DNA of 64,000 nucleotides. Source: Patagioenas fasciata. Taxonomy: Eukaryota > Chordata > Aves > Columbiformes > Columbidae. Shown one piece after another: positions 17,971-61,059 of this stretch. The first letter of the stretch is position 1, and every line of letters starts with the position of its first letter. The translations under genes were made by a program, and so were the position numbers. The stretch spans positions 43,241,001-43,305,000 of the forward strand of contig NC_092523.1 in the NCBI RefSeq assembly GCF_037038585.1. Reading direction: 5' to 3'. The notes under the pieces were generated by a model that saw only the letters and a program-made list of their open reading frames with translations, was not told where the DNA came from and searched no databases.

Positions 17971-19164
17971 TTGGGATGTTTTTTTCAGCACCGCCCAGAC
18001 ATTCTGGGGAAGAATGAAATGTTTTGGTGGTCTTTAAGCTGTGGGTGTACAGTTCTCTCAGGGCTGGAGGGGAGGTTTATTACATGGAAAACGTGTCATT
18101 TTGTCCTCTGCTCCCATCAGACACCCAAATCCCAGTCCTTTCTGGCACTCTCAGCATTTTCACATATAATTCTCTCACGTATTAATATATGGGGTTCCTC
18201 CTTGGACCTATATTGCGCTCTGTTTCCCACCCTGTTGCATGGGAGCAAAGACAGCCTTAGCTCTTCATTTGCAAGGCAGTCTGAGGGACAGCACGCTGAA
18301 GCTCTGTGATAGCCAGAAACACACCATGTTGGCACAGGATCACAGCTGTCAGGTCGCAATTTGGGATCTGGGCTCAAAGGGCTTGTCCGTAGGCTCACAG
18401 TCACAGCAGCCTCCTGATGATGCTTGTCTTTTGCACGTCTTTTGGGTTTTCCCACGGATAAGTTGTGTTCAAGAGAAGATGTGTCTTGTCTCCTGAGTAA
18501 CCTTCACGGGGAAGAGCTTTAAGTCCCCCAACTGGTTCTGTCCTACAGGAGAGGACACCATGCATGCCAGATCCCTGGGTGCCAAGAGAAAAGGCTAAGA
18601 CACCAACTGGCTTCTCCACAGACCTGTGTGAGGCATTTATCAGACCCCCCAAAACCTTGAAGCTCCAAACTAGTGGCTATTTATGGTGAACCTAGAACAT
18701 AAATGGACACTTATGTTGTGGTGAATGGTTTGGAGATCTTAAGGCTGTGGTTAGGTTTTGTATAGCTAGGTATTACTACACGGTTACTACAGTAGGGTTG
18801 AGCCTTACTATAGTAATTTGATATACAGCTTTTCTTAACTGTTTTAGTTTTAATTACATGAATCTTCTGTACATTGCCACCATATCTACAAACTACCAAA
18901 ACAAATCCATCCCAATAGGTGCTCAGCAGGAGTAGCAATGACCTCTGCCTTTGTCTTTCAGGCAAGCCTCATAAAAACGAAACTCTTTGATTTAAAAGCT
19001 TTAGTGTTTGATTTAAACTAACCATAACATTTACCACGGCTTAAATAAAAAAGACTTTAGAAATTATGACAAAATTCATTACTGCTACCCTCCGTCGTTT
19101 TTTTTAATAGAATGGCTTATTCTAACAAAGAGCCCAAACCAGTCAAATGTTAACAGACAATTAC
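17971..19164. other. Unassigned block upstream of the NAF1 promoter
   Basis: 18000-18660 is richer in G+C than its surroundings and has overlapping open frames of 80-112 codons on both strands. None has a recognisable domain. It could be a remnant of an older repeat, such as an LTR, but I found no clear LTR ends, primer-binding site or target-site duplication. 18700-19164 returns to AT-rich unique sequence that changes abruptly to GC-rich at about 19165. Confidence 0.4.
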
Positions 19165-19314
19165 TGCATCCCCCCACGCCCCGCCTCCTTCCCGCCCCGG
19201 GCGGCCGCGCGCGGCCGTTGTGCCGTGCAGCTCCGCCCTCCCGCAACGGCCGCTCCTCGTGCGCTCCCGCTGCGCCGCCGCGTCACGGGAGGGGCCGCAG
19301 CGCGACCCGTGCGC

Positions 19315-19320
19315 CACGTG
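19315..19320. promoter_or_regulatory. Perfect E-box CACGTG in the NAF1 CpG island
   Basis: A palindromic CACGTG sits 145 bp upstream of the start codon. This is the canonical MYC/MAX and USF site. Several H/ACA RNP genes, DKC1 among them, are established MYC targets, so regulation of NAF1 with ribosome production is plausible but not shown. A CGTCA half-site (CRE-like) is at 19281-19285. Confidence 0.5.
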
Positions 19321-19384
19321 CGCGTCCCGCCCCTCACCAGGACCAGGCGACTCGAGCGCGGCGGGGCGTGGGCGCTCGGGACAC

Positions 19385-19392
19385 CCGGAAGT
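19385..19392 (+). promoter_or_regulatory. ETS/GABP-type site CCGGAAGT
   Basis: An exact CCGGAAGT core lies 68 bp before the start codon. Such sites are typical of TATA-less CpG-island promoters and often lie close to the transcription start. Confidence 0.5.
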
Positions 19393-19459
19393 GGCGTGTG
19401 GCTGGGGGTGGGGCTGCGGGCCGCGTGGGGCGGCTGGGGCGCGTGCCGTTAGTGCCGGC

Positions 19460-20049
19460 ATGGAGGCTGAGGTGGAGGTGGTGGCGCAGATGGAGAGCCT
19501 GGGCTTTGAGCCCGGCACCGCCGGCCCGCCGCCGGGCACGGAGCAGGCGGCCAGCACGGAGGAGCTGCCGGGCGAGGAGCAGGCGGTTAGCGTGGAGGGG
19601 CTGCCGGGCCGGGAGCAAGCAGTCAGCATGGAAGGGCAGCTGGGTGAGGTCAGCATGGATGGGATACCGGGCCAGGAACGGGCGGCCGGCACGGAGGGAG
19701 CGCCGGGTGAAGAGCAAGCGGCGAGCGCGGACGGGGCGCCGGGCGAGGAGCAGGCGACCAGCACGAAGCGGGAGCTGGACGAGGAGCAGGTGGTGAACAC
19801 GGAGGGGGGTCCGCGCGAAGAGCTTGCGGCCGGCACAGAGGGAGCACCGAGCGAAGATCAGGCGGCCCGCACGGAGAGGGCGCTGGGCCAAGAACAGGCG
19901 GCAAGCGCGGAAGGGGCGCCGAACCCCCGGGAGGGCGGTGGGGAAGAGTGGTGCCCGCCGCCCCCAGCTGGGGCAGCGCCCTGCTCACCGCCGTCTGAGG
20001 ATCCCAGCGGGCCCCCGGCTGCCGCCGCCTCCTCGTCGGACTCGGACAG
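19460..20049 (+). CDS. NAF1: NAF1 coding exon 1 (residues 1-196 and two bases of 197)
   Basis: Starts at ATG in the context GCCGGCATGG. The donor is CAG|GTGGGT after 20049, leaving phase 2 (AG) that combines with the first base of exon 2 to give Ser197. Residues 1-25 include a hydrophobic/acidic start like that of other NAF1 proteins. Residues 26-154 are eleven 12-residue repeats, 155-190 Pro/Gly-rich, and 191-196 begin the Ser/Asp run. No in-frame ATG occurs upstream in the CpG island. Confidence 0.93.
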
Positions 20050-23000
20050 GTGGGTTTAGCCCCGGGTCTAGGCCGTGAGGGCCGCGTCGCTTTCCGCGGG
20101 TCGCTTGTTCACTGGAGGCCGGCGGTCCTGTGGCTCAGCGCTCTCGGAGCGGGGTGTCCGGGTCCGCCCCCCTCCCTGCCACACTGTTGCAGCTTCTGTA
20201 GCTTTCCCGTTAAGGATGACGTTTTCAGTTATATTTCAATAGGAGTTTTATTTTTGAATTAATAAGTCTGCAATGACTGTAATGCTATACGATTTAATGA
20301 GAACATGAGTTTGGCGTGGTGACCTGTAGACCATCATGGTTGACTGTGCCACTGTGTCCATTTGAATTCCATTTGACATGGTCCTCACAGGGTGCTTCTA
20401 CATCACTTGTGACAAGACACCTGCAGTGTTATTACTGGAAAAAAAAAAAAAAAAAAAAGAATGTAAGATTCAAGATAAAGAATCTGCAGATTTTAACCCA
20501 TGTTCTAGTTTGGGCATCCTTGGTGGAAAACCTCATTCTTGACTTGCATTTTTAGTTTATAAAAGGTTCCATCTTCTACTTGTGTCTGTGCATTGGTGTC
20601 CAGTATAGTTGGTAAAAAGTAACTTTGGTTAGATGTTGGCTCTGTTTCAGTCTAGAAGCTTGCACACTTTGTCAGTTTTACTGAGTTTTTGTGGTTTCGG
20701 GCCATTGAAGCAAGCTGGGTGTGGCTGCTTCTAACTAATGAAGACTGAAATGAAGTGTAAGTATCTCCCCTTAATAAGAAGATACTGAGCTTTGTTAACA
20801 GTTAATGGGGTAAATCTTGACTTTGCAAGTACTTGGTTTACTCTGTTCAAAGTTTTCCTAGAATGTTGAGGTCTGATGTAGAGTGAAATTCCTGACCTAT
20901 AGCAAAGGTTTCACCTGTAGTCTTTTTTACTTCCAAATGTATAGTCTGATTTTTTTTTTGGGCTTTCTGCTATATTGATTTTGTTCCAGTAAGTCCATAT
21001 TTGGCCATTTCAAAAGGTTTGTTTGGAGAGGTGCTCTTATTTGTTGTCTTTCCTATCAGCAATTATTGGAAAAAAAATGCAGAAACAGATAATTGGAAGC
21101 CATCCATTTGCTTGTAAATGAGATAATGTAATACCAAAGAATCTAAAAGAGAGGTGGGTTTTTTTGGTAGTTTATTTATCACTGTTTCTAAATGTTGCTT
21201 TGTTAGAGATCAGATCAGGTAAGAAAGGACAGGTGCAATTTTCCAAAAGTTTGCTTGTCCCAGTGTCTTTTTATGCAGAGTTTGCAACCATTTTTTTCCG
21301 TCACCAGTTTCAGTTACTCCATGTGTTTGTTTCTTCCACCAACTCTTGAAGAATTTAGACTTTTGCTAAAAACAATGTGTCGATATGAATAAGAACTGGC
21401 TTCTTAATGTGCTCTTTGCTTGAAATAGTAAGTCTAAGACAGTAAAACTCTCTTATGTGTGTACCAGTGAGAAAAATTAAATTACTAATCTGTGAGAATA
21501 TGTATTTGGGCAATTCAGACAGGCCATGAATTATGAAACTAATCACTTTCATCTGCTAAAGTGAGAATTTGGTTTTTTAACCTTTATAGTGCAAGATGCA
21601 TTGCTTGGAATGAGTATTTTCTAGGCTTGCACTTAGCTTTATGCTAATATTGGGATTGTACAAGAAAAGTGACTGTGAGCTCTAGCAGGTAGTTTAATGT
21701 ATTATCTTTGAAAAGTATTTTTGTGCTCAGATACATCTGGTGATGTTCAATTCTGGGAATTTGAGTGGTGCATAAAATGGGAATGTGCTGACAGTATATA
21801 GACTTTATGGTCCTGGTTTGGCTGTATTTATATAGGTACTATACTGAAGGTGATCATCCTGTGACTCATCATTGCAAACCCATGAAGTGTAGGTCCCAAA
21901 CTGTGACTATCACATGTGTCTGACAGAGAGAGTTGTGCTGGTGCTGGACTTTTACATTGGGTAACCAGTGGGAGAAACTGGATTGGGTGAACTTAAAGAG
22001 GTGATTGCTTTCATGCCACAGGCACCATTCAGCAGTGAAACAGTGGGAACCCAAGTGAACCATTCTAGTTGTTAGCATTTTCCCAGAGCTACTGAAGCTA
22101 TGATTCTCAGATTTTTTTTTTGTTTTTGTTTTTATTTATGGTTTTGTCCACTAGCTTGTAGGTTCAGGAAAGATGGCTGTTCCTCTATATACAAATGTAT
22201 ACATTTAAGAAAAACATATCTAGTAAGCAAAGGTACTTGAGTGATTTATAATCTATCCACTCTTTTTTATCTGTAATGTACAAGTCTATGTTCTAACTCC
22301 TTTGTTTGTTTTGTTCAGTGATACGGATTCAGATAGTTCATCAAGTACGTCCTCCTCTCCATGTTCCCCTTCAATAGTATCTGATGAAGATGATCATCTG
22401 AATGGGAAGGATAACAGATCTTACTGTGTTAAAACAAAAGATGAGTTGCCTATTGATGTAAGTACAGTGTGTTATCTTTTAAACCCTTTTCTAGTAACCC
22501 AACTTAAAATATTTTAACTTAATATATTTTAAGTCATTGCAATACTTAATGATTGAATGTAAGTTTTTGTACTAATTCAGATACAGCACAGTTAATGACT
22601 TAGAATGTCGTAGTTTTTCAGTATATTAAGACCCCTCTGAAGGTTCATATTTGTGTAAAATCAGAATTGTAATTAACGAAAACAAATTTCTGGATAAAAT
22701 CCTGGATCTTTTAGTACTTTTTTAGTACTGTATATTGCAGGCTTTCATCATCCTTTCTCTATGTGAGAGACTTGAAGGTCTGATATGTCTTGCAGTCATA
22801 TTTCAAATATGTTTAGCCTTGAGGTAAAAATTTTGGATGTTATATTAAGCCCCCCAGAGGTTCAGATTACATTGCTTCTACTCACTTAAGCAAAATTATT
22901 AGAGCAGTTGTAGAAATGGTTTGCGTTTGTTTTATTCTGCAATTTTTGTTACAGCACTGTTTTATTTATTGCAGATCAGAGCCTTAATTTGCATCAAGAT

Positions 23001-26000
23001 ACTGTCTTTTGGTTTTGGTTCTCATAAATACCATACTCATTAAGTTTTGCTGCAATTATTGCTCATTATCTCAAAATTAAGAGGTTGAAAGGAATGAGTT
23101 TTAGTAATAATCTGCTAATGGATAATTAGTTATGCATCATTTTTAATGGATTACAAATAAAAGGATAATGTAACACTGCAGTGTCAATTTACATTGACAG
23201 TATGTCTTCAGCTGTTATTCTGTAGATCTCTCCCCTTGATAAAAATGGTTTATGGAATGAGAAACAAACCTGATGCAAGGGTACAAGAAATTATTAGAAA
23301 GGTAGAGAAAAAACCTCTGAAGAACAGATGCATTTGGATACATTTACCTTTGCTTCAGTGGTCTGTAACAGTTTGTAATGAAATGCTAGATGACTCTCTG
23401 GAAAGGATGAGGCATTGACACACAGTACTAGTAGCAACATCAGGATATGGGAATATGTTGATAATTCTTGAACTGTTGGTGTACAGATACCTGGAGTAAA
23501 TAAAAACTCTTGGGATTTTCTTTTATCCCTGAAATTAATAAAAGATTAAGAAATACACATAACATTATGTTCTGAAGGAGTAAAATATCAAAGCAATTGC
23601 TGCTTATGTGCACTTTGTTTTGAAGTATGATTGATAGTAGAACCATTTTAAGTAGTTCTATTACAACAATTTTACAGCACTGGACTTCTGAACAAAAATC
23701 CTTCCTCAAAAAGATGTACTTATCAGGTTTTATTTACCTTTTATCTCAATTACTTAAATAAAATTAATGTTAGTCTCAAAATGCTTTGTGGATCTGCTCT
23801 TTTGTCTCATTAGCTTACTAGCTTCAAGTCCAAGTGCTTACAGAACATTGTCTTCCTTTTCGGTACTGACCTGATTAATTTCATTGGCTCATCAAAGCTA
23901 TAGCTTTTCACCTGTAATAGTTGATAAGAACTGAAGTTCTAGCAACTGCTTTATTTACTGTGTCCTGTACTGAGCCATTCTATAGTAATAGACTAATCTT
24001 GCATAGACTAATTCTGTGTAAGGTATTGTAGATTGTCTTATGTAAATTTGATGTGATACAATTGGCAAATTAAAATGTATCTGTTCCAAATGAAACATGA
24101 TGATTAGTCTTTTGGTAAAAGTTCCTAACTAGCTAACTTGCTAAAGCATGCGTGAAAGATAAAGTATTTAACTGGAGTATGTGCTTAGGGGGAAAAACAT
24201 GCACATATGAAGGAGTGCTAGTGGAACTGTTCTGGAAACCTCTTGCTTTGAAGCGTAGGACTGACAGATATTGTGTACAGTATGACAGTTTGTTGGAGCA
24301 AGTCTAGAGGAGGGCCACAAATATGATCAGAGCACCTCTCCTAGGGACAGGCTGAGAGAACTGGAGTTCTTCAGCCTGGAGAAGAGAAGGCTCTGGGAAG
24401 ACCTTACAGCAGCCTTCTAGTACCTAAAGGGGCCCTAGAAGAAGGCTGGAGGGGGACTCTTTTTACAAGAGCATCTTGTAATAGGACAAGGGGTAATGGC
24501 TATAAACTAAAAGAGGACAGATTTAGTTTAGATATAATGTAGAAATTCTTCACCATGAGGATGGTGAAGCACTGGAACAGGCTGCCCAGAGAAGCTGTGG
24601 ATGCCTCATCGGTGGGAGGCTGAATGGGGCTTTGAGCAACCTGGTCTAGAGGAACATGTCCCTGTCCATGGTGAGGATGTTGGAACTGATACTTAATGTC
24701 CCTTGCAACCCAAACCATTCTATGATCTTAGCTTTCTTCCTTCTGTATTTTTGCCTTTGACTTGTTCTGGCTTCCATGACTCAGTTAAGTCTTAGCAGTG
24801 GAGTTGGTTTAATGTTGGAAAACTTACTGTCCTGTAGAAGGTATGGTGTTTCTATCTGAATTCACATCTGGGCTTTAATGCTATATTTTCTGATCTGATA
24901 AAGTGTTTGCCTCTATTTGGTCTTTGTGTTGCTCTAGAAGCCTTTGGCAAGCACTTTTGCTAAGAGTGGAGATGTATCAGGTGAAGTTTTGATAAGACAG
25001 GGTAAGAATCTTCTATTGGAGAGAGATTTTATTTCTGGTTATGGCCTTTAAAAGTGCAGTTCAGTGCTAAGGTTTGAATTCTACCTCCAAATTCATATGA
25101 TGTTGAACTTGAAGATAATTTTTACTCTAGTTGCCCTTACCTTGTATTCCACATAGTCCATATTGAATTAACAGCATTACAGTATATACATAGAAGTCTT
25201 ATGAGTAAATTGGAGGTAGATTATATGTTTGGTGTTAATCAGCCTTTGATAACAGATTTTGATGCTGACACTTGAGGAAAAGGCTCAATTTGCATATTGT
25301 TTGTGCAGTATTTATTTGTGTATCTGAAGCTTGGCACTTATTTCCAAAGTATTCCCTAGTATTATCCTCTTTTACCAAATACGACTTCTAGCTAGAACTA
25401 ATTTTCTTTGTAAAGATCATGACAACCTATACATCTTCTATAATCTGAGTTGTGGCATAAATGGACAAACATTTTGTATGTAATATTTTTCATACTATTT
25501 TATCTCTTACTATGTACATTTTTCTTCTGTCATGCATTGAATGTGGTTACAGATTTTTTTTTTGATTGCTGATTATCAAATTATTGTGTTGTACATGGAA
25601 CTTATCTAACCTGAAAGTTAAAAAAAATAACAAAATATCTAGCAGTTATTGGTTTTCTCCAGTTGAATAAAATTGGCTTCTACTTCATTTGCACTGTAAA
25701 TGTGTGTAGTAGTATCTCAATAGAATAGGTGCCTTCAGAAGTGACATTCCTCCAAAATGAGTTCATTTAGAATTATACTGAACAAGAGAAATCAAACTAT
25801 AATTTTTAAATTAAGTCTTAAAAATGCTAGGAGGTTTTTGTAGTTGTCAAATTTAAGCAGCAAAGAGATTAAAGTCTTTGTGTGATAAGATTATATTCTG
25901 AACATTTATTTGGTATTTTCAGGAACTGCCTCCTGTTGAAGACCTAGCAATAATTCTGCCTGATAATGTTGAACTGAAACTCTTTGGGACAGTTTCCAGC

Positions 26001-29000
26001 ATCATTGAGAATCTAGGTAGGCAAGATATGTTTGCTTTAGTTTTAATTAAAATAATTTCTGTATATCTCTGCATTAGTTGTGTCCTTAACTGTTCCCTGA
26101 AAGTATTAGTACTGCAGCATTCTGTTTCAGGGGTTAACAAGTTGCTGAATGAGAACTCAAACTACCAAGTGACATTTGTATTGAATTCCATTTTAGTTGG
26201 CTTATGCCTTCTAAAGATGTAAGATACTACAACTATTATGGATGTATTTTTGTGTGACTTTCATGTTCTGATCTTTACATAAAAACCCCTTTTCACCATC
26301 TATTAGGATCTTTTTATTCTGGCAACAATAAGATTGATAATTTGCAGTATTTTAAGAAATCTTCCAGTTGTACATGCTATATTTGAATTATCTCTGAAGG
26401 TACAGGTGTACAACTGGAAGTACAGATGCAGTCCCATGTGCTTGCTTGTTAACATATGAGGACAGGAAAAAACTTGCTTCTTTAGCCAGTGTAGCGGTGC
26501 TTGAGCAGTTGGCATTTTCGGCACCTTGACTAAATACAGACTGCAGACAAAATACAGTTTTGGCAGTCATAGGAGAACATGACTAACATGGTATGTAGGT
26601 ACTGGATGGCAAGATTAATGGGATTGAGAGGTACACTGTATGCAAGCCTAACTGCAGGCAATATGCATTTAGGGATATTTTCAGATATACTTGGGACCTC
26701 AGTTTTTGATATGTGAAATCAAAGTTTTGCTGAAGCTGGTATTAATAAATATCCATGGTATGGTTATATTTAAGCTTGCCTCAGGTGTTCCGTTCTGCTT
26801 GATGTGCTTTCAAAGCAATTTGCTTGTGAAAAACAGAAACAAAGTTCAATGTGAAGTATTTATGTTGAGTGGGGTACAAAAGAATTAAAGCAGATATCCA
26901 TTTGCTATTCAATTTTCTTATATTGTAAAAGACTGGGTAATACAGGCAATTCCTTTACAGTATATTAGTTGTTTTTGTTGGTTTAGAGTTAGGTTTAATT
27001 TAATTCATGTGCAGGAAGCTGTCTTCAGAATGTGGAAAGTAGTAGTCTAGTCATTGTTCTATCATTATACTTTGCCCTTTCTTGCTTATTGATATTTATG
27101 GGGACTTGAAGAAAGCTGTTTACAACTAAAGTGATAGTTTGAAAATAAGAGAGAAGTGGTTAAATCATAGTTTGCAATTATTTTTGATCTAGTATGTGAA
27201 TGTTTAAACAAAGCTGTTTTTAAAGACTTCAATTATGAAAACTGTCCTTAATTTCTAATCCTCTTTGGTATGTATAACCTTTTCAAATCCCATGCATTTA
27301 CTGCCAGGTGAATTTTGGAGTCTGTATTCTACTTTACATAACTGAAATATATTAATTGTTGAACTTGGATTGGTTGGTAAAAGTTAGAAACCAGACTAAT
27401 AATAATAATTCATGAAATAAAACTGTAAGAATGAAAAAAAAAAACCCATGATATCCTTGTTATTTTTCTGCTTTTACCACCTTGCTATATGACTTCTTTC
27501 TATGTGTTTTCCTTTGTTTTCATTACTTCTGGAAACAGTTATCTCAGTGGCCTCAATTTCAATTGTTTTGTGGCTGTATTAGGGATTCTGCTATCTATAA
27601 TAATTGTGGGTTAGTTTTTGATTTTTGAACTAAATTGATACTTGTGTATACAGGGAAGTTGAGGCCTCATTTGGAAATCACAAATATTATTTTGGCACAA
27701 TTGGTGTCCTGAACACTTTCTGTCCCTTTGTATCAGAAATCTCTGCTGTTCTCTGCAGCAAGCTTCCAGGTTCATCAGTCTGCAGTATGTGATACCTGTA
27801 AGTTGGCTATTTCATGCTATGAGGTGAACTGAGGCTGTGTCAGTTTAGGCTCATACTTGCTTCACACCGGCTAAAAGGAAGATGACAGTACTTTCTGTGA
27901 ACTTTTCCTGCTCAGTGTATCAGAATTTAACAGGATTCTTACTGTATTTTGCTTCAAGGTACTTACAGGAAAAATTCACTGTGTGGGTTGTTACCTGGAA
28001 AGTAAACAGCTTTGGTATATATTTGAAACCTGCCCTGGGACTGCACTTTCAGCCCTGGAAGAGTAGAAGCTGAGGATTTTGGGTGGGTTGGGTTAGGGTT
28101 GGTATAAGTCAATAAGTGATAATGTTTCTCCTGGGTTTTATGGGAATGGCATGACTTATGTTTTTAGAATATTTTTGTTAGCCTGCTGGAAAACTAGGGG
28201 CTATGTGCAGTCAGTCAAATTGAGAGCATTTTGTGGAAGTTTTTGGTGTGTGTTTAGAAATTCAGTGAACTATAAAGCCTGTTGCATTGTCACAGGCTTA
28301 CTTGGCATGTCACAAGGTGTTTGCAGATTGAAATAGTAGCAAAGCTGGAGTTTTAGCTTGATGAGATGTTTATTGCTTTAAGTCTTGTTATGTAAGTTTA
28401 GCAGTGATAATCTTGTTAGTTTTCATTTGAATGACACTAAGTGCTTGGGTGACTTTATTTGATGACGGAGAGGCATTGAGAATGCTTGAGTGTTCTGTTG
28501 GTTTAGAGGTAGAAAAGATTACCTTCAGAATGAGAATTTTTGAGGTTAATGCTGCTAGGCCTCTGTATTGACAGCTTTATGCATAATTCCTGCTGAACAG
28601 AAAGGAAGACCCAATATTTCTGTAGGCTAAAGCAACAAATGTGGACTACTACCAACAAGAAGAGTGAACTACTCTCAAAATTTCAATAAAAAATAAACTC
28701 TTTCTGTCTCTGAATCTGGAAAGCCTAAAAAAGAAGCAGCCTGTATATTAAATAATATATTTAATTGAGGAAGAACATGCTCTGTGTCCATTTATAAATG
28801 TTTAAGTCTACTAAATGTTACAATTTTATATTTTCAACTACTGGAATGACTTGCTCACTCTGACCACTCATACCATCATTAATCATTGATGAGGCCCAAA
28901 TGTAATATGAAACTGTAACATGACATTAAATTACAGAAATGTATTTCAAATTGTATATCTGCATACATAAGTGACACCAGCAGTTGCTACTGTGACTGGA

Positions 29001-32000
29001 CTGACATATCATTTGTGTTCTGGTCTAATTCTTATGACTTACAAGGGCAAGCTGTAATGAATAACCATCTCCATTCTTTTTTCCAAGGAGAATTTCATTT
29101 GGAATACTAAGAAGGCAGAATATATCTGCGCTCAAAAAACACAGATTATTGCTGCTGTGCACTTAATTAAGAAACATCCTGTGATGTTTCACGTATATCA
29201 CATATCTGAGACTTCTCTTTTGTACCTATTATCTGGTTTCCTTTCTCCACCCTAGAGAACAAGAATTCTGTAACAAACATAATTCTTACCACCTATATGT
29301 ACCTGGAGAAGGCGTGTATGATTGTAGGTAGTTTTGTGTGTGTGCAAGAATTTTCCAGTGAAGCTCTGTGACCTTGAATAGACAAATAGTGGAGTGGCTT
29401 GTTAGGTTTCTCTGCAATTAACTACATATTACTGTTGAAACAAAGTTCTAATTATTTTTTTTCCATTTCAGTAATAATTGAATCAATGAGAGGCCTACCT
29501 CCAATAAATGAAGACAGCATAATTTTTAAAGAAGATCGGCAAGCAGCAGGAAAGGTGTGTGTGAAGCATAAAAATCTGTTATTTTGGTTTAAATTAAAAA
29601 CATTCTTTTATATTGCAACAAGTAGTGTTGAAGCTGACTAAGTGAAAGATGTTTCCTTGATATGTAGTTTTTGTTTGAGCTTTTGACTCTTGCTATAGTA
29701 ATCTATTTTTTTTGTTGTCTCAAGAATTCCTAACCTGGAATTCATTGCATTCTTACAGAGTTGCAGTGTGCAATGAGTTTCTATTTTATGAACGTGCTCA
29801 TGGAGAGGAAGAGGTTGCTTTTAGATGTATGATGCCTTGAGTAACAGGTTGCGCTCTTTTGTTGCCAGGAGTTGGGGGCAAAGGTTGGAGAAATCAGAGT
29901 AAAGTTTCAGGAAAAATGGGGAATGTTTGCATATCTATGCCCTGCTGCTCCAGTTTAAGGCCGGTGTGTGCTTTATGCAAGTATAATGAGGAATATTTGC
30001 TGAGAGGGATGTTGCATTGAATTTTCTGTGTTTTCTGGGAAAGGAAAACCATCATTTAGAATAGTTACTACTGTAGTATCTTTGAATGCTAGATGTGAGT
30101 GAAACAAAAAAACACAGCCTGAAATTGCAACTGCTCTGTACAACATTTCAGAATTCTCTATTCTCCGTGGAGTTGGGGAGCAGACAGGAACTGACATAAA
30201 GGCATCTTGTAAAGGTGAACTTTGAGGAATAGATGATCAGTAGATTGTTCCAGATGTAAGATATTTGAAGGCATAACAGAGAGAGAACAGAGCAGACAGT
30301 GGAAAGCAGTGCAGTTGGGTAGGCAAAGGCAAAATCAACTTACGAGAACTTTTCCAAATTATGACTTAAACAGTAGCTGGGGAAATGTACTGTCAAACAG
30401 AATGTGCTAGTAAAACTGAAGCATGAAAGTAACTATATTTTATACTGCTTTTTGAAAAGATATCAACCTTCTTAAATACAAAGCATATTAAAGCTTCCCA
30501 GTTGTCTACAATGAAATTAGCTACCTACTCTTGGTGGTTTATTTTAACATTTTGTTTGTTTTTCAGATATTTGAGGTATTTGGTCCTGTTTTACATCCGT
30601 TTTATGTGTTGAGATTTAACAGCTCTGAGCATATAATAGCAAAAGGTATTACTGTGCAAGATAGCATGTATTTTGCTCCATCAGTGGAAGACTTCACCCA
30701 GTATATATTTGCAGAGAAACTAAAACAGTGAGTTTGACTTTTTTCCTCATCTGGTTATAATGTATTTTTCAACATAAGTAGAAATCTGGGATTTAAGTTT
30801 AGCCTTGAGTGAGAAACTGTAGGACTAAGCTTGACACTAAAACTTTTGTTTTTTTAGATATTCTCAATTGTGTTGTAGTAACAAAGTTGTACTGTTTTGT
30901 CTTTCAGAACAGCACAAGTAGCTGTAAACTACAAGCTTCTAAAGTGTTACAATTGCTAAGTTTAGGAGCTTCTTAGTTGGCTTAATATATTAAGCTCTCT
31001 TGCTTTTCATGTTTCTTTGTTACCTAAAATATCATAACCAAAAAAACATTCATTGGTACTTCCTTCCCCCACACCCTCACACACACATACACATGCATGG
31101 GTTTTGTGAACTGAACTTTCCAGATTTTGTTGTTCTGCAGCCTGTTGTTTAGTTTCATAATTTAAAATAAACCTGTTTGAATTCTGAACAAGTTTGTATT
31201 TATATACTATTTTTCTTTCATGTTACAAGGCCAGAACTGAAATTTAATTATCAATAAAGCTGTTGTGCAGTTGAGGAATAACAATTATCTATGAAAATTA
31301 CCTGCTGTAAATTTGGGAGAGGGAGGGATTTGAGTGACAACATAATATCATGCTCAGAAACTTCTCAATAGTATTGGTGTATCCTGGTCTGCCTGAGGAA
31401 AGTATTGTGACTTGTTGCCATTTTAAAGGAAGTATACTCAAAGATACAGAATAAGAAATAAAGTGTAATAAATGACTGCTAGATATTAGTGTTCTACTTA
31501 TAGTTACTTCAGACAAATATTAATCAATAGGTTAAAAAAAGTCATTTGTCATACAAGAGACTTAGTCTCTGTGAGGATTAGTTCTCATCTGACTTGCAAT
31601 GTTTTCTGACGATAGCCAGTAATATTAATGTCTGCATTAATTGCAACTCTGCCAGTATTCATACTGGATAATTTTTTTCGTTAGTCATACATGTGGCTAG
31701 GCCTGCAGGAGTCTTTTTTTTTAATTATTTTTTTCCATCCTTACCAATTTCTGTGGAAGCAACAAGCATTTTTTTAATTTCAGTGAAGACTAAAATAGAT
31801 CACTTTCTCACTCTGCTGCTTGGTTTTGTTTTGTTTTTTTTTTTTTTTTCTGCAGCATTTTAATTCCAGCTGATCTTTGATTTGTGCCATTAAACTCTGT
31901 TGCTTAACACAGTAACTGCAAAGACTTTGTTTCTCTGCTTACTATATTAAAAACTGTGTGCCATACTCAGCATCTGAGATGTGAGACTCATGTTTTTGTT

Positions 32001-35000
32001 GCATGCCTTGCAGCTAGTTTTGGGAACTGTCTTTCGGTAGTATGTCACTATCATTCGTGGTACAAAATTGAACACTGGGTAAGATGTTTCACTCTGTCAT
32101 GACATATCAGTGCAGCTGAACAGTGCATCAGACACTGTTTCCTGCCATGCGTTACAGTCAGCAGTGTGAACACCTTTGTAATCTGACGTAAACCATAATT
32201 TCTGAATAATGTGACTTAAGTTACATTTTAATGAAACAATGTTTTATTTCCGAGTTTTGACAGTAAAGCTTTTGTGAGGCAATTAGTATTTGTCGAAGCT
32301 GCCTTTTAGCAAACTAGGTGTCATTGAAAAAGGAAAAATAATTTTGATTCCTCATCTGTGCTGTAATGTCTATGTAAAGAAACCAAGATGGACAGCATGG
32401 ATAGTAGAAAAGCAGAGCTTTAGTCGTTGCTTCACAAGAAGGCTTTCAGACCTTAACACACTGTAAATTGGGTGACCAGTGACTTGTTTTCTGCTTTTTG
32501 TTGGTTTGACTGTGCAGACCTGCTTGTGAAGTAGCGTAGGCTTGAAGTTTTAGAACCGCTACTCAAAACTTGATGGTACTTTGAAAAAGAATCAGGATTA
32601 AGATCTGAAAGAAATCTTAAGTTCGAAGCTTCTTCTGAAATCTGGCATGCAATCTGCTTGCATTGTGCAAAGTTGCAGCACTGTGAGTAAGCCTTACACT
32701 TTATAGAAAAATAAATGAAAGTGTAGTGTAAAACTTCTTGAATGCAATACAATTTGTTGCTAAAAATAGATGTTTTATTGCCTGAAACACAAAGTAATTC
32801 TAAAGAAGCTCATGTATTTTCATGATTCCTCTGAGTCACCTTTTGTTAGACTTTGAGATCTTACGGTACCTGAGTTGGGAAGACCAATATTACTGTCTCG
32901 TTCTTTTCAGAAGATTATTAAGTATCTCAGAGCATGAAAAGTGTGGTGTGTTTTGCTGAAATGGGGAAGGCTGCCTTGGGAGAGAGAGATAAGATGCCAT
33001 GAAGAATTTACAAGGTCTAAATTTTGCTGTCAGTAGTACTGTATATGGTCTAATGACCACACATCTTGGAGGTGTACTCTGGTATTTCTGGTAGGCATTT
33101 ATTGCCCCAAAATAACAGGATCAGAGGGAAAAAACAAAGAAGTTGTTTCATAATTAAAAAGGTGTTACCTTTTGTTATTGCATAGGTTGAGAGTTTTCTG
33201 CAGTTGAGAAGTTACTCCTATAGAGCCCTTGATCTATCTTTCTTCCTTGTTACATTTGCTTCTAATTGAACTTCAAAATGGCTTGCATGCTAATATGATT
33301 TGTTTATAATCACAAACGTGGAGGGTCTTTATGGTTTTCTAGTGACATGTGGAGACTGAGCTCTGGTTTTATGGTTAGAGGTTGAGGCACAAACTACCTC
33401 CAGATGACTCACCAGCATTCTCATGGGCAGCTTTCGACTAAGGACCTACTAAGTCTAGGATACCTAGAGCCAGTGGTTATGTACTTTGATGTAGCTGTTG
33501 CTGTTTGATTGTCATTGATTTGGTGAATACATAAACCCCTCCTTGGTTATTAGAGCACTGATGAAAGACTTTTCACACTGAACATGTTGGTATTTTTAAA
33601 TATCTAGTTCTGTTTTTCAACTAAGAATTTTCAGTTTTACACAGTTTGTCTGTGCAGGTGAACATTGTCTTCACGTTTCAGACCAAAATATATTAAATTA
33701 GTGAACAGTGTGGAAGAACCTTCCACAGACTTCAACAGGATAGTTGAAATTTATTCCACAAAATTTTTGCTGATCAAAGAAATGACTTGATTTTTAGTGA
33801 AGTTCTTAAAGTGGTGGGTGAAATAAATGACACCACTTCAAATTAATTTTGGTGCTTGTCAGGCATTATGATTGAGCTTTTAAATTTTATATTTACAATT
33901 TAATAGAAGGTGAAACCTAACTTATATTAATAGAATTGTAAACCAAGCTTAGAGTTTCTTTGTTCCAAATTCAGTTCACTATAGGTATACTTAAAGCCTG
34001 TGTCCTACTAGACTAACTCATTGTCCTTTTGAACTGGAGATTTGTATTCTGAAACCAGAAGAGTAAGAAAGCTTATGACTAGTCAGCACTTAGCATAAAT
34101 TGCAGTGAAGTACCTCAATTGAGGTTCAAAGCACTTTAGTCTCAAAAGGATGTTTTGAGAGAATGTTGATCAAGCTTAATATTAGCTGGGTGAAATGTTC
34201 AGTGTTCACTTAAGTAGGAAGATTTTTCAAGTGACATATGTAGTGAAGTTCTAAGTTGACACAGACATTACTATTCACTTAGAAACAACATTAAAAAACA
34301 AATGCCACTTGTAAAACTGCCAGTTCATGGTGTAGGAGATCTGGTACCTTGAAGAAAGCGTTACCCTATTTGCTACAGTACAGTTCTTGCAAATTATTTC
34401 TAACCTGGAATAGGTTCCTACTACATGACTCCAACAAGAGATGTTCCATAGCCCACTTACACGATTTTCTTTCATCTTGATTGTCTAATTGTGTATTGTT
34501 TTTGTTTGTTTGTTCTCTTTTAGGGAAAAAGGTTCAGATGCATCTTGGAAGAATGACCAAGAACCACCACCTGAGGTAACTATATAGTTTTTTTTATTTG
34601 TTGTTTTTTATTACATAATATATATGTTGAAAAAATTATGCGCAGAGTAACTAATTAGCAAGCATTTTTTATGCAGACAAGAGTTGGATGTACCTCTTTT
34701 CTTCATTAAACAGAAGGCCATGCTTTTCTTGGAGAGGTTTCACAGTCAGCATAGAGTACTAGCTGTCTTTCAATCCTTACTTTTTGCAGTTGGGAAAATG
34801 TATATCTTCAGTTCCTCAAGTCCTTCAAGAATATGTTTGACAACCTGAATATTCAGCTTTGAGTAGCAGTGCTTTTACCTTACCCAATAATTTTTCTTCT
34901 GTGAGGGAATTTTTGTTCTTGCTGTTCTTTCAGTGCAGCTCTCTTTTCCCTTGCCCACAAGCAATTGTTTGTCTTTGAAGGCCTACTAATACTCTGCAAA

Positions 35001-38000: not shown

Positions 38001-41000
38001 TCATGGTATACATCATCCTGTTGCATTCTTTGTGACTTTTTTTGCGTAAGAATATAGTCCAGTTATGTAGAAGAGGAAATAGTTGTATTGAGAATTAACT
38101 TTTACGTGGCTTTTCTGGCACTGTTTTAGTGCAGTGTTTTTGAGATTGTTACTCTGTACATACTGTAGAGATACATCAGTAAGCAGCAGAGCCCTTCCTT
38201 TCAGACTTGGGAAGGAAGGGTGGGAACAAACCCTGCCTCTTAAAGTCATAGGAGTGATGTGTTTTTGGAGAACTAGTTGTGATAACAGATTTATTTCCTA
38301 ATTCTAAATGTAAGCTTGGATTGAAAAGGTAGCAAAACCTTGTGTAACAGGAACAAAATGTTTCAGTGACATTGAATCTATTGTAAATGACAACATTTTC
38401 CAAAACTGAGAATTCCTTTGGAGTAACATTACTATTGCAAGTTTGATGGGAACAGTATTATTAAATATATACAACAGAAAATTCTCATTTAGTGACAATT
38501 TTAGACTAGAGATATTTTTAAATGTAGTTTAACTGTGCTGAGTTATGTATTGGTTACCAAGTTAATTTGAACTTACTTAAAAAATCCATATTTACTTCAG
38601 ATACTCTGCAGTTTGCCCTTCAAAAGCTTGTCTTTGGCAATAACTAGCCAGCTCCCTCAGAGATTCTCAGTTTTTTCTAACATCTAGGCAATCAAAAATT
38701 TGTGCTCAGTACTTGAATGTTGCCAGTTCTAGGAAAATAATTTGTCTTATGAGATATTTGTGGAGTGTTAAGTTTTTGATTGTGTTGAGAAACCAGCTGA
38801 ACGATGGCTCTTTGAATGCAGAATAGGGAAGTGTGGCTTTAATATTCTTCTAAGCTGACTGCAAGATGGACCGTTTTCTAAATTGTTTTCTAAATAATTA
38901 TTTATTGCTAGAACTGAAGTTCTCTGTGTACTCTTTCTATGGCTTTTTTTTCTCTTTTGTTGGTATTGTTTTGTTTTATTTTGTTTTTTTACCAGGCTTT
39001 GGATTTCAGTGATGATGAAAAAGAGAGAGAGGCAAAACAGAAGAAAAAGAAGCTTCAAAGCCAAGGCAGGAAGAAACTCAGATCAGAAACAAATGCTTCA
39101 AGTGAGTAAATACTATAGGAGAACAATGCTTTTATCTGTTAACTTGAATTTGAAATGCACAATGATATGTATCTTAATGATTGGACTTTCATACAGTTAA
39201 TCAGTGTTTCTGTGCTATTCAAAGTTATATTTGTGAATTTCTGGCTATACTCCTGAATTGTTTTACAAGGAAAATGAAGGTTTTTTCCATTAAATTGTGA
39301 AAAGGAAGTAGTATTAGGAGCAGGACAGTTGTCAGAGGAGATTCAAAGGCTGTTATGACAGTGTCAGCTGGCACACAGTGAGGATAGAGGACAGATGCCA
39401 CCTTTTGGAGTTTGGAGCTTGCTTATTGCAGAGGTTATTTGGGCCCAAGCTAAGCTTCAGCCTCTGATTGCAGGTAGAAGACACAGGAAGTCCATGTACG
39501 TTTTCTGGAAACCCATTTTTTTGACAAACGGGGAGAAGACAAGTCTTAGATGGGGAATCTATTCTACTATCTGAAAAGGAAGCTCTGCCTCACCCATGTC
39601 ATATAAATGCTCCTTTAAAACGTCTGGTACTTGTGTAGTCCACTGAGAACCTCTTTGCTTACCTAACACAGTCATTAAATAAACCTATAGTAGTTTAATA
39701 AGCTATGTATAGGCTTGCATAATTTACATAGCCTTCTTTACCTTCTTTCCTCCTGCTGTTGATAGATCCGTTGCAGGTGTATGCTTGCAGCTGTGCTCGG
39801 TTTGCAGTAACTAAATTTTTTTATCTGTCTTGTGCCTCTCTACTGACAAAACTTTTTGCATTTTGGTTAAAATAATTTAAATCACATCCCTCTTTCTCTG
39901 TTCTCGTTGGTCTGGTATTGTTGGATGCTTTTTGCACCACTCTCTTTAAAACTACTGACTCATCCCCTCTCCTTTTCCTCTTAATCTGCTGCTTACGTAT
40001 CAGGTTGCTTAATCTGTCTGCAGCACAGTTGTTTCCTCCCATTGGTTTTCTTGGACTGACTCCTTCTGTGAGTTTGCTGTTCTTTCTTTGTAAAGCTGCT
40101 AAACATGGCACTCCAGTGAAGCCCTTTTCTCTTGATCTGGGCAATCAGTAACTGTCCTGTTAACCATTTTGTTCTGTGTACAGTACATTCCTCACTTGTA
40201 CCTTTTAAATAAAGCTGTGACCTTTCTTTGACTGACTTTTGTTCTATGGTTTTGATAGTTCTCCCTTGTGGGAAGGATCTGAATCATGCCATACTTTCCT
40301 TTCGTTGCTGATGCTTATTTTCCTCACCTCGTTTCTGCTTATCTAGCATATGGCATGTTTTCCACCATATCCTTATTCTGCCAGCATATCACACACCTGC
40401 CTTTGCCTAGGGCTTGCTGAGGCTGTTACTGAACTATGTTTCATAACTGAGAACACAACGGGGGGAACTGTCTCAAGCTGTTAGGGGAGTATGGGTTACA
40501 ATTTGCTGTGTTTTTCAGTAAATAACATGGTATAAATTAGTGTGCAATTTAGTTTGGCTATGGAACTCAGCAACAAAGTTATCTGGCAAATTGACTACAA
40601 ACTCAGTCTCAGCTGGGGTTTTGGTTGCTTCTTTATAAAACTCTAAAATGGGCTCATTATTATAGTCTTTGATAGGAGAAGAAAGAACAAAAATATTCAT
40701 TCAAGTACTTTCACTTCAGTGTTTTGGAGAGGCGGACATGCACCAAAGGCGTCTAAGTCCTAATACCCTTTGAAAATGAGTAGGAAATTTTGGTATCCAA
40801 CTACCTTTCCAGATTTAGCTTTTCAAAGGTGAAAATGCGGCTATATAGTCTAGTGCCAAGGGTTTGGTCCATGTAGGTTCTTAAAATTTCAGTGATTTTA
40901 TGCAATGTTATATCCCTTTTTGCTTCTAGCCCTAAAATCCTTCAGAGATCATGTTTCAAGTTAAGTTCTACAGCCTTTTGTGTATCTTAGCAGCTCTTTG

Positions 41001-42115
41001 GAACACTTTCAGTATTTCAATGCTCTTAGTTTTCTAGCGCTTATCTGATTAATACTTTTATGGTATTTATATAAAGTGGCAGTACACTAGTAATGAACCT
41101 TAAAAATATGCTTACAGTGACCTGTACAGGGAAAAATTAATCTCTGAAAGGTGAGTGCTGAAAGCTAATTGATACAGGCTACCTTTTTCTGATGGAGTAA
41201 GTTAATTTTATTAATTTGAGTCTTACTAATTTGTCCTGTGTCTGTGCTGTTATACCAGCTCAGGTCAGTGAACTGTAATGCAGTACTGATTTATCATTAC
41301 TTTGAAAATGTGTTGTTTTCAAATCTTGTTTTAAACCAAGTCTTCCAAAAGACTTGTGGTTCAAATGTTCCTGTGATTCATTAATACAAATGAAAATACC
41401 TGGAGGGAAAGAAAGTTAAGTTTATTTTTTAATGACTGAATTTGAAACCCTCAGGATCATCCTTTGTATATTACTTTAATATATCAAGATCAGTTACTAA
41501 ACAGTAGGCTTGCTAGTATTTTGTTGTTTATGTATTATTTGCTAGCTTTATTTGTTGATAGGATTACTTTTCAAATTTCCTTGACTTCAGCTGGAAAGAT
41601 TTGTGATGACTAAGTTTCATCTGTCCAAAATAATATTAAAACTCTGTGTGTGTTTTTGGAGTTTTTAAAAAATTATTTTAATATTTTTTCTTTAAGGTGA
41701 GAATAAGGGACTTCATCAGTCAATGCAACAGCCTGCTTCAAGTTATTCAAGGGGGTACCATGGCAGAGGGTTCTCCAGGGATCCTTTTTTTCCTCCATCA
41801 GGCCCTCCAGGTTTTTTGAGACCACAGGGAAAACCACCACAGGTGTACTCTTCAGACAACAGAATACATCAGGAATCTCCAGTGTTTCCACAGCCTCATA
41901 GAAAAGAAAATCCAATGATGCAACAGTATCCCTTTCCTCCTCCAGTTTTTGATTCTGTTAATGATGTGCATCAATTCTACCTTCCACCTTCAAATCTGAA
42001 TATGGTTTGGGCAGGCCCAAACATGTACAACTCATCGTACCCATTCTTACCACCTCCACCGCCACCGCCTCCACCTCCTCCAGATAGCCATCCTTCTCAG
42101 TTCAGGCCTTACTAG
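19460..42115 (+). CDS. NAF1: NAF1, H/ACA ribonucleoprotein assembly factor (8 coding exons, 547 aa)
   Basis: Spliced CDS: 19460-20049, 22319-22457, 25923-26016, 29472-29554, 30567-30727, 34524-34575, 38996-39101, 41697-42115. The total is 1644 nt including the stop. All introns are GT-AG and all phases close. NAF1 binds dyskerin through its Gar1/Naf1 domain, stabilises immature H/ACA snoRNA, scaRNA and telomerase RNA particles in the nucleus, and is later exchanged for GAR1. Residues 1-190 are acidic and repetitive, 191-220 Ser/Asp-rich. Residues 244-356 form the Gar1/Naf1 core, including FGPV at 307-310. Residues 357-380 (SDASWKNDQEPPPE, ALDFSDDEKE) are highly conserved, 387-402 are basic and NLS-like, and 409-547 are Pro-rich with an 11-proline run at 527-537. 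The start codon is the first in-frame ATG and has a strong context (G at -3 and +4). Human NAF1 is, as I recall, 494 aa; the excess is in the N-terminal repeats. Confidence 0.95.
19535..19921 (+). repeat. Coding minisatellite: eleven 36-bp units in NAF1 exon 1
   Basis: Residues 26-154 divide into 12-residue units with consensus G-E-E-Q-A-A-S-T-E-G-A-P. Units begin at residues 26, 38, 50, 62, 71, 83, 95, 107, 119, 131 and 143. Unit 4 is 9 residues long because three residues are missing. At DNA level this is a degenerate 36-bp minisatellite in which every length change is a multiple of three. The segment is acidic and probably disordered. I know of no matching repeat in mammalian NAF1. Confidence 0.9.
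20050..22318 (+). other. NAF1: NAF1 intron 1
   Basis: Donor GTGGGT, acceptor TTGTTCAG. The first ~120 bp belong to the CpG island. A run of 20 A lies at 20439-20458. No CR1 copy, snoRNA or additional exon is recognisable. Confidence 0.85.
20439..20458. repeat. A20 homopolymer in NAF1 intron 1
   Basis: Twenty consecutive A. No retrocopy body is seen before it. Confidence 0.9.
22319..22457 (+). CDS. NAF1: NAF1 coding exon 2 (residues 197-243)
   Basis: Acceptor TTGTTCAG|TGAT, donor GAT|GTAAGT. It continues the Ser/Asp run begun in exon 1 (DTDSDSSSSTSSSPCSPS), which has many acidophilic (CK2-type) phosphorylation contexts, and ends in KTKDELPID. The exon is 139 nt and ends in phase 0. Confidence 0.93.
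22458..25922 (+). other. NAF1: NAF1 intron 2
   Basis: Donor GTAAGT, acceptor GTATTTTCAG. It contains one CR1 fragment (24293-24728, sense orientation). A short open frame at 23194-23418 was tested as an exon and rejected. Confidence 0.85.
24293..24728 (+). mobile_element. CR1 LINE 3' fragment in NAF1 intron 2
   Basis: Begins with a GGAGCAAGTCTAGAGGAGGG-type block, runs through the RT C-terminal coding relic (GAACTGGAGTTCTTCAGCCT, then GAGGATGGTGAAGCACTGGA) and the 3' UTR, and ends with CATTCTATGATCTT, the characteristic CR1 terminal repeat. Internal deletions and stop codons make it non-functional. It is in the sense orientation within the host intron. Confidence 0.93.
25923..26016 (+). CDS. 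NAF1: NAF1 coding exon 3 (residues 244-274 and one base)
   Basis: Acceptor TTTTCAG|GAACTG, donor CTAG|GTAGGC. It encodes the start of the Gar1/Naf1 domain (ELPPVEDLAIILPDNVELK, then GTVSSIIENL), the first strands of the six-stranded barrel that contacts dyskerin. Phase 1 at the end makes Val275 with the next exon. Confidence 0.95.
26017..29471 (+). other. NAF1: NAF1 intron 3
   Basis: Donor GTAGGC, acceptor TTCCATTTCAG. Mostly AT-rich unique DNA. It contains a telomere-like G-rich motif at 28081-28102. Confidence 0.85.
28081..28102 (+). other. Telomere-like G-quadruplex motif in NAF1 intron 3
   Basis: GGGTGGGTTGGGTTAGGG at 28081-28098 has four G3 tracts with loops of 1, 2 and 3 bases, followed by TTGG. 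It includes a TTGGGTTAGGGTT core (28088-28100) that resembles the vertebrate telomere repeat TTAGGG. It lies on the sense strand and would therefore be present in the pre-mRNA. Whether it folds or acts is not known. Confidence 0.75.
29472..29554 (+). CDS. NAF1: NAF1 coding exon 4 (residues 275-302)
   Basis: Acceptor CATTTCAG|TAATAA, donor AAG|GTGTGT. It encodes VIIESMRGLPPINEDSII, followed by the FKEDRQAAGK segment that leads into the conserved G-K-I-F-E motif of the Gar1/Naf1 barrel. It is 83 nt and ends in phase 0. Confidence 0.95.
29555..30566 (+). other. NAF1: NAF1 intron 4
   Basis: The shortest intron, 1012 bp. Donor GTGTGT, acceptor TTTGTTTTTCAG. No repeat or RNA gene is recognised. 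Confidence 0.85.
30567..30727 (+). CDS. NAF1: NAF1 coding exon 5 (residues 303-355 and two bases)
   Basis: Acceptor TTTTTCAG|ATATTT, donor AAACA|GTGAGT. It holds the hallmark of the domain, IFEVFGPVLHPFYVLRF (303-319), followed by SSEHIIAKG and the TMYFAP-like DSMYFAPSVEDFTQYIF. This is the strongest family evidence in the window. Reading through the donor would give an immediate TGA, so splicing is required. Confidence 0.97.
30728..34523 (+). other. NAF1: NAF1 intron 5
   Basis: Donor GTGAGT, acceptor TTCTCTTTTAG. It contains a C/A-rich patch (31067-31097) and a T16 run followed by CTGCAG (31834-31855), which looks like a strong but probably unused splice acceptor. No CR1 or RNA gene is recognised. 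Confidence 0.8.
34524..34575 (+). CDS. NAF1: NAF1 coding exon 6 (residues 356-373)
   Basis: Acceptor TCTTTTAG|GGAAAA, donor GAG|GTAACT. This 52-nt micro-exon encodes EKGSDASWKNDQEPPPE, which is nearly invariant in vertebrate NAF1 and confirms the phase across the long introns on either side. Confidence 0.95.
34576..38995 (+). other. NAF1: NAF1 intron 6
   Basis: The longest intron, 4420 bp. Donor GTAACT, acceptor GTTTTTTTACCAG. It contains a minus-strand CR1 copy (35610-36700). Confidence 0.85.
35610..36700 (-). mobile_element. CR1 LINE, 5'-truncated, in NAF1 intron 6 (antisense)
   Basis: On the minus strand it carries the end of the RT region: the relic of the FADDTKL block lies near 36450 (ATCATCAGCAAATTTGC on the + strand), followed by thumb relics in 35943-36146 (TLVWPHLQHCMQLWCSQFKK, RKATKLVKG). 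The 3' UTR lies at the left (TTGGAAGAGATCTGCAATGA, then TCCAACTGCCTGACTACTTC). There are many frameshifts and stops. The 3' terminal octamer repeat is worn away, so the left edge is approximate. Confidence 0.92.
38996..39101 (+). CDS. NAF1: NAF1 coding exon 7 (residues 374-408 and one base)
   Basis: Acceptor TTTTACCAG|GCTTTG, donor TCAA|GTGAGT. It encodes ALDFSDDEKEREAKQ followed by a lysine-rich stretch and GRKKLRSETNAS. Residues 387-402 form a basic, possibly bipartite nuclear localisation signal. Retention of the next intron would add only Ser-Glu before a TAA, because the intron starts GTGAGTAA. Confidence 0.93.
39102..41696 (+). other. NAF1: NAF1 intron 7, with a possible alternative terminal exon
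   Basis: Donor GTGAGT, acceptor TTTCTTTAAG. 39731-40260 is pyrimidine-rich on the + strand. It contains a good acceptor-like sequence ending at 39765 and an AATAAA at 40208-40213 followed by T/G-rich sequence. Confidence 0.8.
40208..40213 (+). terminator. Candidate intronic poly(A) signal AATAAA
   Basis: TTTTAAATAAAGCTGTGACC is followed by a T/G-rich stretch (about 40222-40260), a typical cleavage and polyadenylation arrangement. Use is not demonstrated. Confidence 0.35.
41697..42115 (+). CDS. NAF1: NAF1 coding exon 8, Pro-rich C-terminus and stop (residues 409-547)
   Basis: Acceptor TTCTTTAAG|GTGAGA, phase 1 joined to give Ser409. The exon encodes SRGYHGRGFSRDPFF, many PP-containing segments (QQYPFPPPVFD and similar), and an 11-proline run at 42050-42082, then DSHPSQFRPY and TAG. 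The Pro/Tyr/Asn-rich tail ending in a poly-Pro run and PY is typical of vertebrate NAF1. The poly-Pro codons are mixed CCA, CCT and CCG. Confidence 0.95.
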
Positions 42116-60874: not shown

Positions 60875-61059
60875 TCCCTCTCCCTCTCCCTCTCCCTCTC
60901 CCTCTCCCTCTCCCTCTCCCTCTCCCTCTCCCTCTCCCTCTCCCTCTCCCTCTCCCTCTCCCTCTCCCTCTCCCTCTCCCTCTCCCTCTCCCTCTCCCTC
61001 TCCCTCTCCCTCTCCCTCTCCCTCTCCCTCTCCCTCTCCCTCTCCCTCTCCCTCTCCCT
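60875..61059. repeat. Perfect (CCCTCT)n hexanucleotide array, about 31 units
   Basis: 185 bp of uninterrupted CCCTCT repeats, polypyrimidine on the + strand. The minus strand is (AGAGGG)n with a G3 tract every 6 bp, giving about 30 successive tracts with 3-base spacers. It is also a polypurine/polypyrimidine mirror-type sequence. All frames are open simply because the unit has no stop codon; the encoded dipeptides (for example Arg-Gly and Glu-Gly on the minus strand) are not evidence of a gene. Confidence 0.97.

What the first reader, a model, noticed from the sequence alone, without database searches (positions are those of the whole stretch)
19535..19921. NAF1 exon 1 is largely a coding minisatellite of eleven 12-residue units
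The N-terminus repeats the consensus GEEQAASTEGAP eleven times, one unit shortened by three residues, all in frame. The unit length (36 bp) allows unequal exchange without frameshifts, so repeat number may vary between individuals or species and lengthen an acidic, probably disordered arm of a factor needed for snoRNA and telomerase RNA assembly. I know of no such array in mammalian NAF1, which suggests a lineage-specific expansion.
Basis: partly seen in the sequence, partly recalled or inferred. Interest (0 to 1): 0.7.

Follow-up and report, generated by a model that had tools for sequence, protein, structure and literature searches.

The report
Old coding repeat in NAF1 N-terminus
The first exon of a probably avian NAF1 gene, a factor that helps assemble snoRNA and telomerase particles, contains eleven diverged in-frame copies of a 12-residue acidic unit, which looks like an old, ordinary lengthening of a floppy protein tail rather than an actively varying one.

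Summary
Window 19535-19921 (+) holds ten 36-bp units and one 27-bp unit, contiguous and in frame. TRF scores are 225 and 313; 0 of 2000 shuffles of the exon reach 225. The gene is NAF1: downstream exons carry the Gar1/Naf1 domain (Pfam PF04410, E 7.3e-22; PDB 2eqn, E 4.5e-42), and eight exons join into one intact 547-residue frame through the array. The first in-frame ATG precedes the array, and no ATG lies in the GC-rich leader 19161-19459. The array is acidic (net charge -23), and AlphaFold2 gives no confident fold. However, the units are diverged: mean identity 69%, best pair 83%, dS about 0.57. That argues against ongoing homogenisation and easy variation between individuals. Selection on residues is weak at most: neutral drift is not rejected. 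Lineage-specificity could not be tested; no vertebrate orthologue was reachable. I read it as a known kind of thing: an in-frame tandem expansion of a disordered region.

The parts
19460..20049 (+). NAF1 exon 1 coding part (start codon at 19460; donor CAG|GTGGGT between 20049 and 20050)
   Evidence: Open frame and junction to exon 2 in the same frame, giving SDSDSDTDSDSSSS across the splice. No ATG in 19161-19459. No transcript data.
19460..19534 (+). 25-residue N-terminal cap before the array, with in-frame ATGs at 19460 and 19490
   Evidence: The ATG at 19460 has G at -3 and G at +4, a good start context by a recalled rule.
19535..19921 (+). Array of eleven in-frame units (ten of 36 bp, one of 27 bp), consensus GEEQAASTEGAP, net charge -23
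19643..19669 (+). Shortened unit 4 (27 bp), best aligned as lacking unit codons 3-5
19922..20049 (+). Non-repetitive rest of exon 1, Gly/Pro-rich then Ser/Asp-rich
22319..22457 (+). NAF1 exon 2, acidic serine tract
   Evidence: Splice sites read from the sequence, frame continuous.
25923..26016 (+). NAF1 exon 3, start of Gar1/Naf1 domain
29472..29554 (+). NAF1 exon 4, Gar1/Naf1 domain
30567..30727 (+). NAF1 exon 5, end of Gar1/Naf1 domain
34524..34575 (+). NAF1 exon 6
   Evidence: Only one of the splice-site combinations tried for exons 6-8 gave an intact frame to the stop.
38996..39101 (+). NAF1 exon 7, basic stretch
41697..42115 (+). NAF1 exon 8 coding part, proline-rich C-terminus and stop codon

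Best explanation
The array is an old in-frame tandem expansion inside the N-terminal arm of an apparently working NAF1 gene. Shown here: position, frame, intact gene model, unit divergence, acidity, no confident fold. Inferred: it arose by repeated slippage or unequal exchange of a GC-rich 36-bp segment in the CpG-island first exon. It stayed because a length multiple of three in a disordered arm is tolerated, and the units then drifted apart by point mutation. In the protein it acts as a flexible acidic spacer between the extreme N-terminus and the acidic serine tract that precedes the dyskerin-binding Gar1-like domain. At most it adds negative charge that helps keep the immature particle soluble and away from unspecific RNA until GAR1 replaces NAF1. 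The exact sequence of the units matters little; length and charge may matter somewhat.
For: Eight exons give one intact 547-aa NAF1 frame, with exactly one solution among the splice combinations tried for exons 6-8, exons 1-5 being fixed beforehand. The Gar1/Naf1 domain is intact. Unit identity is mean 0.69 and max 0.83; dS 0.57 (codon-column bootstrap 0.31-1.13) and dN/dS 0.61 (0.27-1.23). A neutral star-drift simulation with stops rejected is not refuted (P of as many synonymous changes 0.26). The array has 30 D/E and 7 K/R in 129 residues. Single-sequence AlphaFold2 gives mean pLDDT 53, 0 of 196 residues at 90 or more, one short helix at 132-142. No RNA structure beyond shuffles (z -0.44, 36 of 100 shuffles at least as stable). 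Of the three forward frames only this one is open through the array; the other two carry 1 and 3 stops.
Against: Drift from the consensus would on average leave a net charge of -16.2 (sd 4.7); the observed -23 is at P 0.086, and D/E count at P 0.083: a hint, not proof, of selection for acidity, which a purely passive spacer would not need. dN/dS below 1 with a wide interval leaves room for purifying selection. The two shifted frames give ratios of 0.92 and 0.72, so the coding frame's 0.61 stands out only mildly. One antisense frame is also open through the array, so openness alone is weak evidence of coding. Single-sequence AlphaFold2 models are often poor, so low confidence does not prove disorder. 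No transcript, peptide or orthologue was seen.
Confidence: 0.72

Rival explanations
1. An actively evolving coding minisatellite whose unit number differs between individuals or close species and so changes NAF1 arm length.
For: The unit length is a multiple of three and the array has 11.1 copies by TRF. Units 2-4 share V at position 6 (unit 8 has it too) and V or M at position 8, as if derived from one another locally. Lag-4 similarity is slightly raised (permutation p 0.053).
Against: Best pair of units only 83% identical and mean 69%; neighbours not more alike than chance (p 0.17). No pair is near-identical, as recent exchange would leave.
Confidence: 0.1
2. The array is kept by selection as an acidic, multivalent arm that binds basic partners (for example the lysine-rich tail of dyskerin) and delays the NAF1-to-GAR1 exchange.
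For: Net charge -23 against a drift mean of -16.2 (P 0.086). Codon 3 of the unit is E/D in 10 of the 10 units that have it, and codon 9 in 10 of 11. NAF1 is the inactive-state placeholder for GAR1 (review PMC5425277, passages seen), and lysine-rich disordered regions are a feature of snoRNPs (PMC11528048, abstract and section list seen).
Against: Neutral drift is not rejected at 5% for synonymous changes, or for net charge, K/R count (P 0.31) or D/E count (P 0.083). In Xenopus oocytes an acidic disordered region fused to Gar1 left it mainly in its usual compartment (PMC10662738, passages seen). No binding data.
Confidence: 0.15
3. The array is not in the protein: the true start codon or first exon lies downstream of it, and the repeat is leader or promoter DNA.
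For: The region is a CpG island (GC 0.73-0.80, CpG o/e 0.72-1.05 across 19160-20051). One antisense frame is also open, so GC-rich openness is cheap. No transcript start is known.
Against: In-frame ATG at 19460 in good context, with none in the leader 19161-19459. The frame joins exon 2 across the splice and continues to the stop. The one length change within the array keeps the frame.
Confidence: 0.04

Closest known systems
NAF1 (H/ACA RNP assembly factor; core-domain structures PDB 2eqn, deposited as LOC92345 and human by recall, and PDB 2v3m, deposited as NAF1 and yeast by recall)
   Same: The Gar1-like domain matches residues 9-103 of the 103-residue 2eqn chain (E 4.5e-42) and 2v3m (E 3.2e-06). 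An acidic serine tract and a proline-rich C-terminus are present.
   Different: An N-terminal array of eleven 12-residue units. Human NAF1, as I recall it, has a non-repetitive N-terminal arm; no call tested this.
Protein tandem repeats (survey of human ones: Schaper et al. 2014, PMC3995336, abstract and section list seen)
   Same: In-frame protein repeat; [quoted passage not shown]
   Different: The survey is of human proteins and presumes mostly structured repeats; here no structure is predicted with confidence.
Active coding minisatellites such as the PRDM9 zinc-finger array (PMC8925151, search listing and start of abstract only)
   Same: Tandem repeat in coding sequence, unit a multiple of three (for PRDM9 by recall).
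   Different: Active arrays have near-identical units and length alleles (recalled); here the best pair is 83% identical, and allele data are lacking.

Membership tests
NAF1 | Gar1/Naf1 core domain | tested here: met
   PF04410 E 7.3e-22, above the curated cut-off (77.4 vs 29.3 bits); 2eqn E 4.5e-42.
NAF1 | Acidic/serine N-terminal and proline-rich C-terminal extensions (recalled feature of NAF1 as against GAR1) | tested here: met
   Read by eye in the joined 547-aa product. No Pfam family matched exon 1 or the last exon; exon 2 had only a sub-threshold SR-25 hit, E 0.72.
NAF1 | Intact multi-exon gene | tested here: met
   Eight predicted exons, one intact frame; no transcript data.
Active (hypervariable) minisatellite | Units nearly identical through ongoing exchange | tested here: not met
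   Mean identity 0.69, max 0.83.
Active (hypervariable) minisatellite | Length alleles in the population | not testable with these tools
   One window, no population data.
Disordered protein tandem repeat | In-frame repeat array beyond chance | tested here: met
   TRF scores 225 and 313; 0 of 2000 shuffles reach 225.
Disordered protein tandem repeat | No stable fold | tested here: inconclusive
   Mean pLDDT 53, single-sequence run.

The most novel reading that the evidence does not exclude
A lineage-specific, selectively kept acidic arm of NAF1, built from a 12-residue repeat, engages the lysine-rich tails of dyskerin and tunes the hand-over from NAF1 to GAR1. Arm length would then set the output of H/ACA and telomerase particles in this lineage.
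Probability: 0.08. Interest if true: 0.55.

Novelty: new member of a known kind. Interest (0 to 1): 0.25.

Why it matters
It makes up 129 residues, about a quarter, of the predicted 547-aa product of an essential RNP assembly factor. That gives a natural test of whether arm length or charge affects H/ACA and telomerase RNA assembly. It is also a reminder that a tidy repeat is not necessarily a variable one.

Tried and rejected
RNA structure as the function: rejected, z -0.44. Rfam gave no match in the window at gathering scores. A higher-order 4-unit repeat (TRF 135 bp): weak, permutation p 0.053 at lag 4, not claimed. Array extending beyond the stated edges: not seen. Unit elsewhere in the window: best off-array match 22 of 36, on the minus strand; its chance level was not computed. 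Relatives of exon 1: viral contigs (15 pattern stretches, 0 confirmed), genome contigs (95 stretches, 0 confirmed), solved structures (0 matches at E up to 10). Twelve other open frames were scanned against Pfam at E 0.01: 0 of 9 and 1 of 3 matched, of 153 frames of 70 aa or more listed.

Papers. Searches with NAF1 among the terms and two on coding or protein repeats showed no paper on this array among the rows listed. The lists were capped: 20 of 2,226, 20 of 20, 15 of 39, 15 of 120, 1 of 1, 12 of 591, 10 of 694 and 10 of 1,477 papers respectively, judged by title and start of abstract, in an open-licence library only. Passages were seen in PMC6792250 (GC-rich avian genes with tandem repeats; its NAF1 count in the listing is 0), PMC6443650 (2 passages), PMC10123114 (3 passages; 'N-terminal' and 'disordered' occur 0 times there, and its many other NAF1 passages were not read), PMC3169572 (12 of 22 places), PMC4920197 (12 of 18 places) and PMC12683209 (7 of 7). 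None of the passages seen describes the NAF1 N-terminal arm. PMC8925151 was seen only in the listing.

In the first joined frame my exon ends were wrong by 1-3 bases and gave stops; they were corrected from the splice sites.

Full report
What is there. Window 19535-19921 on the plus strand consists of eleven contiguous units, ten of 36 bp and one (unit 4, 19643-19669) of 27 bp, all in the frame of the ATG at 19460. Tandem Repeats Finder reports the array with period 36 (11.1 copies, 67% matches, score 225) and with period 135 (1.8 copies, score 313). None of 1000 codon shuffles and none of 1000 dinucleotide shuffles of exon 1 reaches 225; the highest is 82. The edges are sharp.

Which gene. 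The joined exons at 25923-26016, 29472-29554 and 30567-30727 encode the Gar1/Naf1 domain: Pfam PF04410, E 7.3e-22; PDB 2eqn, deposited as hypothetical protein LOC92345 (human, by recall), E 4.5e-42; and 2v3m, deposited as NAF1 (yeast, by recall), E 3.2e-06. With GT-AG splice sites eight exons join into one intact 547-residue frame ending at 42115. Exons 1-5 were set from the splice sites; among the combinations tried for exons 6-8, exactly one gave an intact frame with the expected segments. Exon 1 runs into exon 2 in frame through an acidic serine tract. So the array lies in an apparently working NAF1. That the host is a bird is my inference from CR1-like reading frames on the minus strand. 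One of these (17565-17885) matches reverse transcriptase, PF00078, E 1e-06, at 29.1 bits just below the curated 29.6. Four others scanned gave no Pfam match at E 0.01 (two, two). The label CR1 is recalled, and CR1 also occurs in other reptiles.

Is it translated? The ATG at 19460 lies 75 bp upstream of the array, a second in-frame ATG at 19490 is also upstream, and no ATG lies in the GC-rich leader 19161-19459. Of the three forward frames only this one is open through the array (0 stops against 1 and 3); one antisense frame is open as well, so openness alone proves little. The single length irregularity removes nine bases and keeps the frame. No transcript or peptide data were available.

How old and how active? 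No unit equals the DNA consensus; units differ from it at 5-10 bases (mean 6.5). Mean pairwise identity is 0.69 and the maximum 0.83. Mean synonymous divergence between units is 0.57 (codon-column bootstrap 0.31-1.13). With an avian neutral rate near 2e-9 per site per year (recalled) this would put the units' common origin at the order of 100 million years. The figure is rough: few sites, CpG-rich sequence, and possible exchange between units. Neighbouring units are not significantly more alike than units in random order (lag 1 p 0.17; lag 4 p 0.053). An array under active unequal exchange should hold at least some near-identical units; there are none. Units 2-4 do share residues as if locally duplicated from one another, which is how I think the array grew.

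Selection. dN/dS between units is 0.61 with an interval of 0.27-1.23; the two shifted frames give 0.92 and 0.72, so the true frame is lowest but not by much. Drift from the consensus with stops rejected gives as many synonymous changes in 26% of 2000 simulations. The array's net charge of -23 is more acidic than drift would leave (mean -16.2, sd 4.7, P 0.086); the D/E count is at P 0.083, the K/R count at 0.31 and the count of F, W, Y, C, H and I at 0.22 (3000 simulations). So selection on exact residues is weak or absent, and selection for acidity is a hint only.

Structure and mechanism. Single-sequence AlphaFold2 gives mean pLDDT 53 and one short helix, consistent with disorder but not proof. 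The exon does not fold as RNA beyond shuffles. NAF1 is held to keep the nascent dyskerin-NOP10-NHP2 particle inactive until GAR1 replaces it (review PMC5425277, passages seen; PMC12683209, passages seen, for the replacement). The most economical reading is a flexible acidic spacer ahead of the dyskerin-binding domain, tolerated because it is disordered and in frame. A functional acidic arm that meets lysine-rich tails of snoRNP proteins (PMC11528048, abstract and section list seen) is possible but not supported beyond the charge hint. In Xenopus an acidic disordered region fused to Gar1 did not shift it out of its main compartment, apart from minor diffusion (PMC10662738, passages seen), which weakens a simple localisation role.

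What could not be tested. No vertebrate NAF1 exon 1 was reachable: viral contigs and genome contigs gave no confirmed relative, and the window's own assembly was unreachable in ten identical tries. The claim that mammals lack the array rests on recall. Literature searches showed no paper on such an array in NAF1 among the rows listed; most lists were capped and the library is open-licence only.

Verdict. A real, chance-excluded, in-frame repeat in the N-terminal arm of NAF1; diverged and apparently old rather than active; a new member of a known kind (in-frame tandem repeats in probably disordered regions). Survey work on human proteins finds the vast majority of protein tandem repeats ancient, with unit number and order preserved (PMC3995336, abstract and section list seen), which fits.

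Noticed in passing
60875-61059: A perfect (TCCCTC)n microsatellite, 30.8 copies at 100% match; G-rich on the minus strand, so a possible quadruplex-forming and length-variable locus, more likely by its identity to be polymorphic than the NAF1 array.
   Followed up: no
16960-18033 (-), 51543-52025 (-), 35943-36176 (-): Open frames that look like CR1-type LINE pieces (recalled likeness), the basis for calling the window avian. 17565-17885 matches RVT_1, PF00078, E 1e-06, 29.1 bits against a cut-off of 29.6; 16963-17607 and 51546-52025 and 17776-18033 and 35946-36176 gave no Pfam match at E 0.01.
   Followed up: partly
19160-20051: A sharp CpG island (GC 0.73-0.80, CpG o/e 0.72-1.05) in a window of 37.7% GC; GC at third positions is 0.81 in the array against 0.28 in exons 2-5.
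   Followed up: partly
19334-19984 (-): An antisense frame of 216 codons is open through the whole array; probably a by-product of GC-rich repeats.
   Followed up: partly
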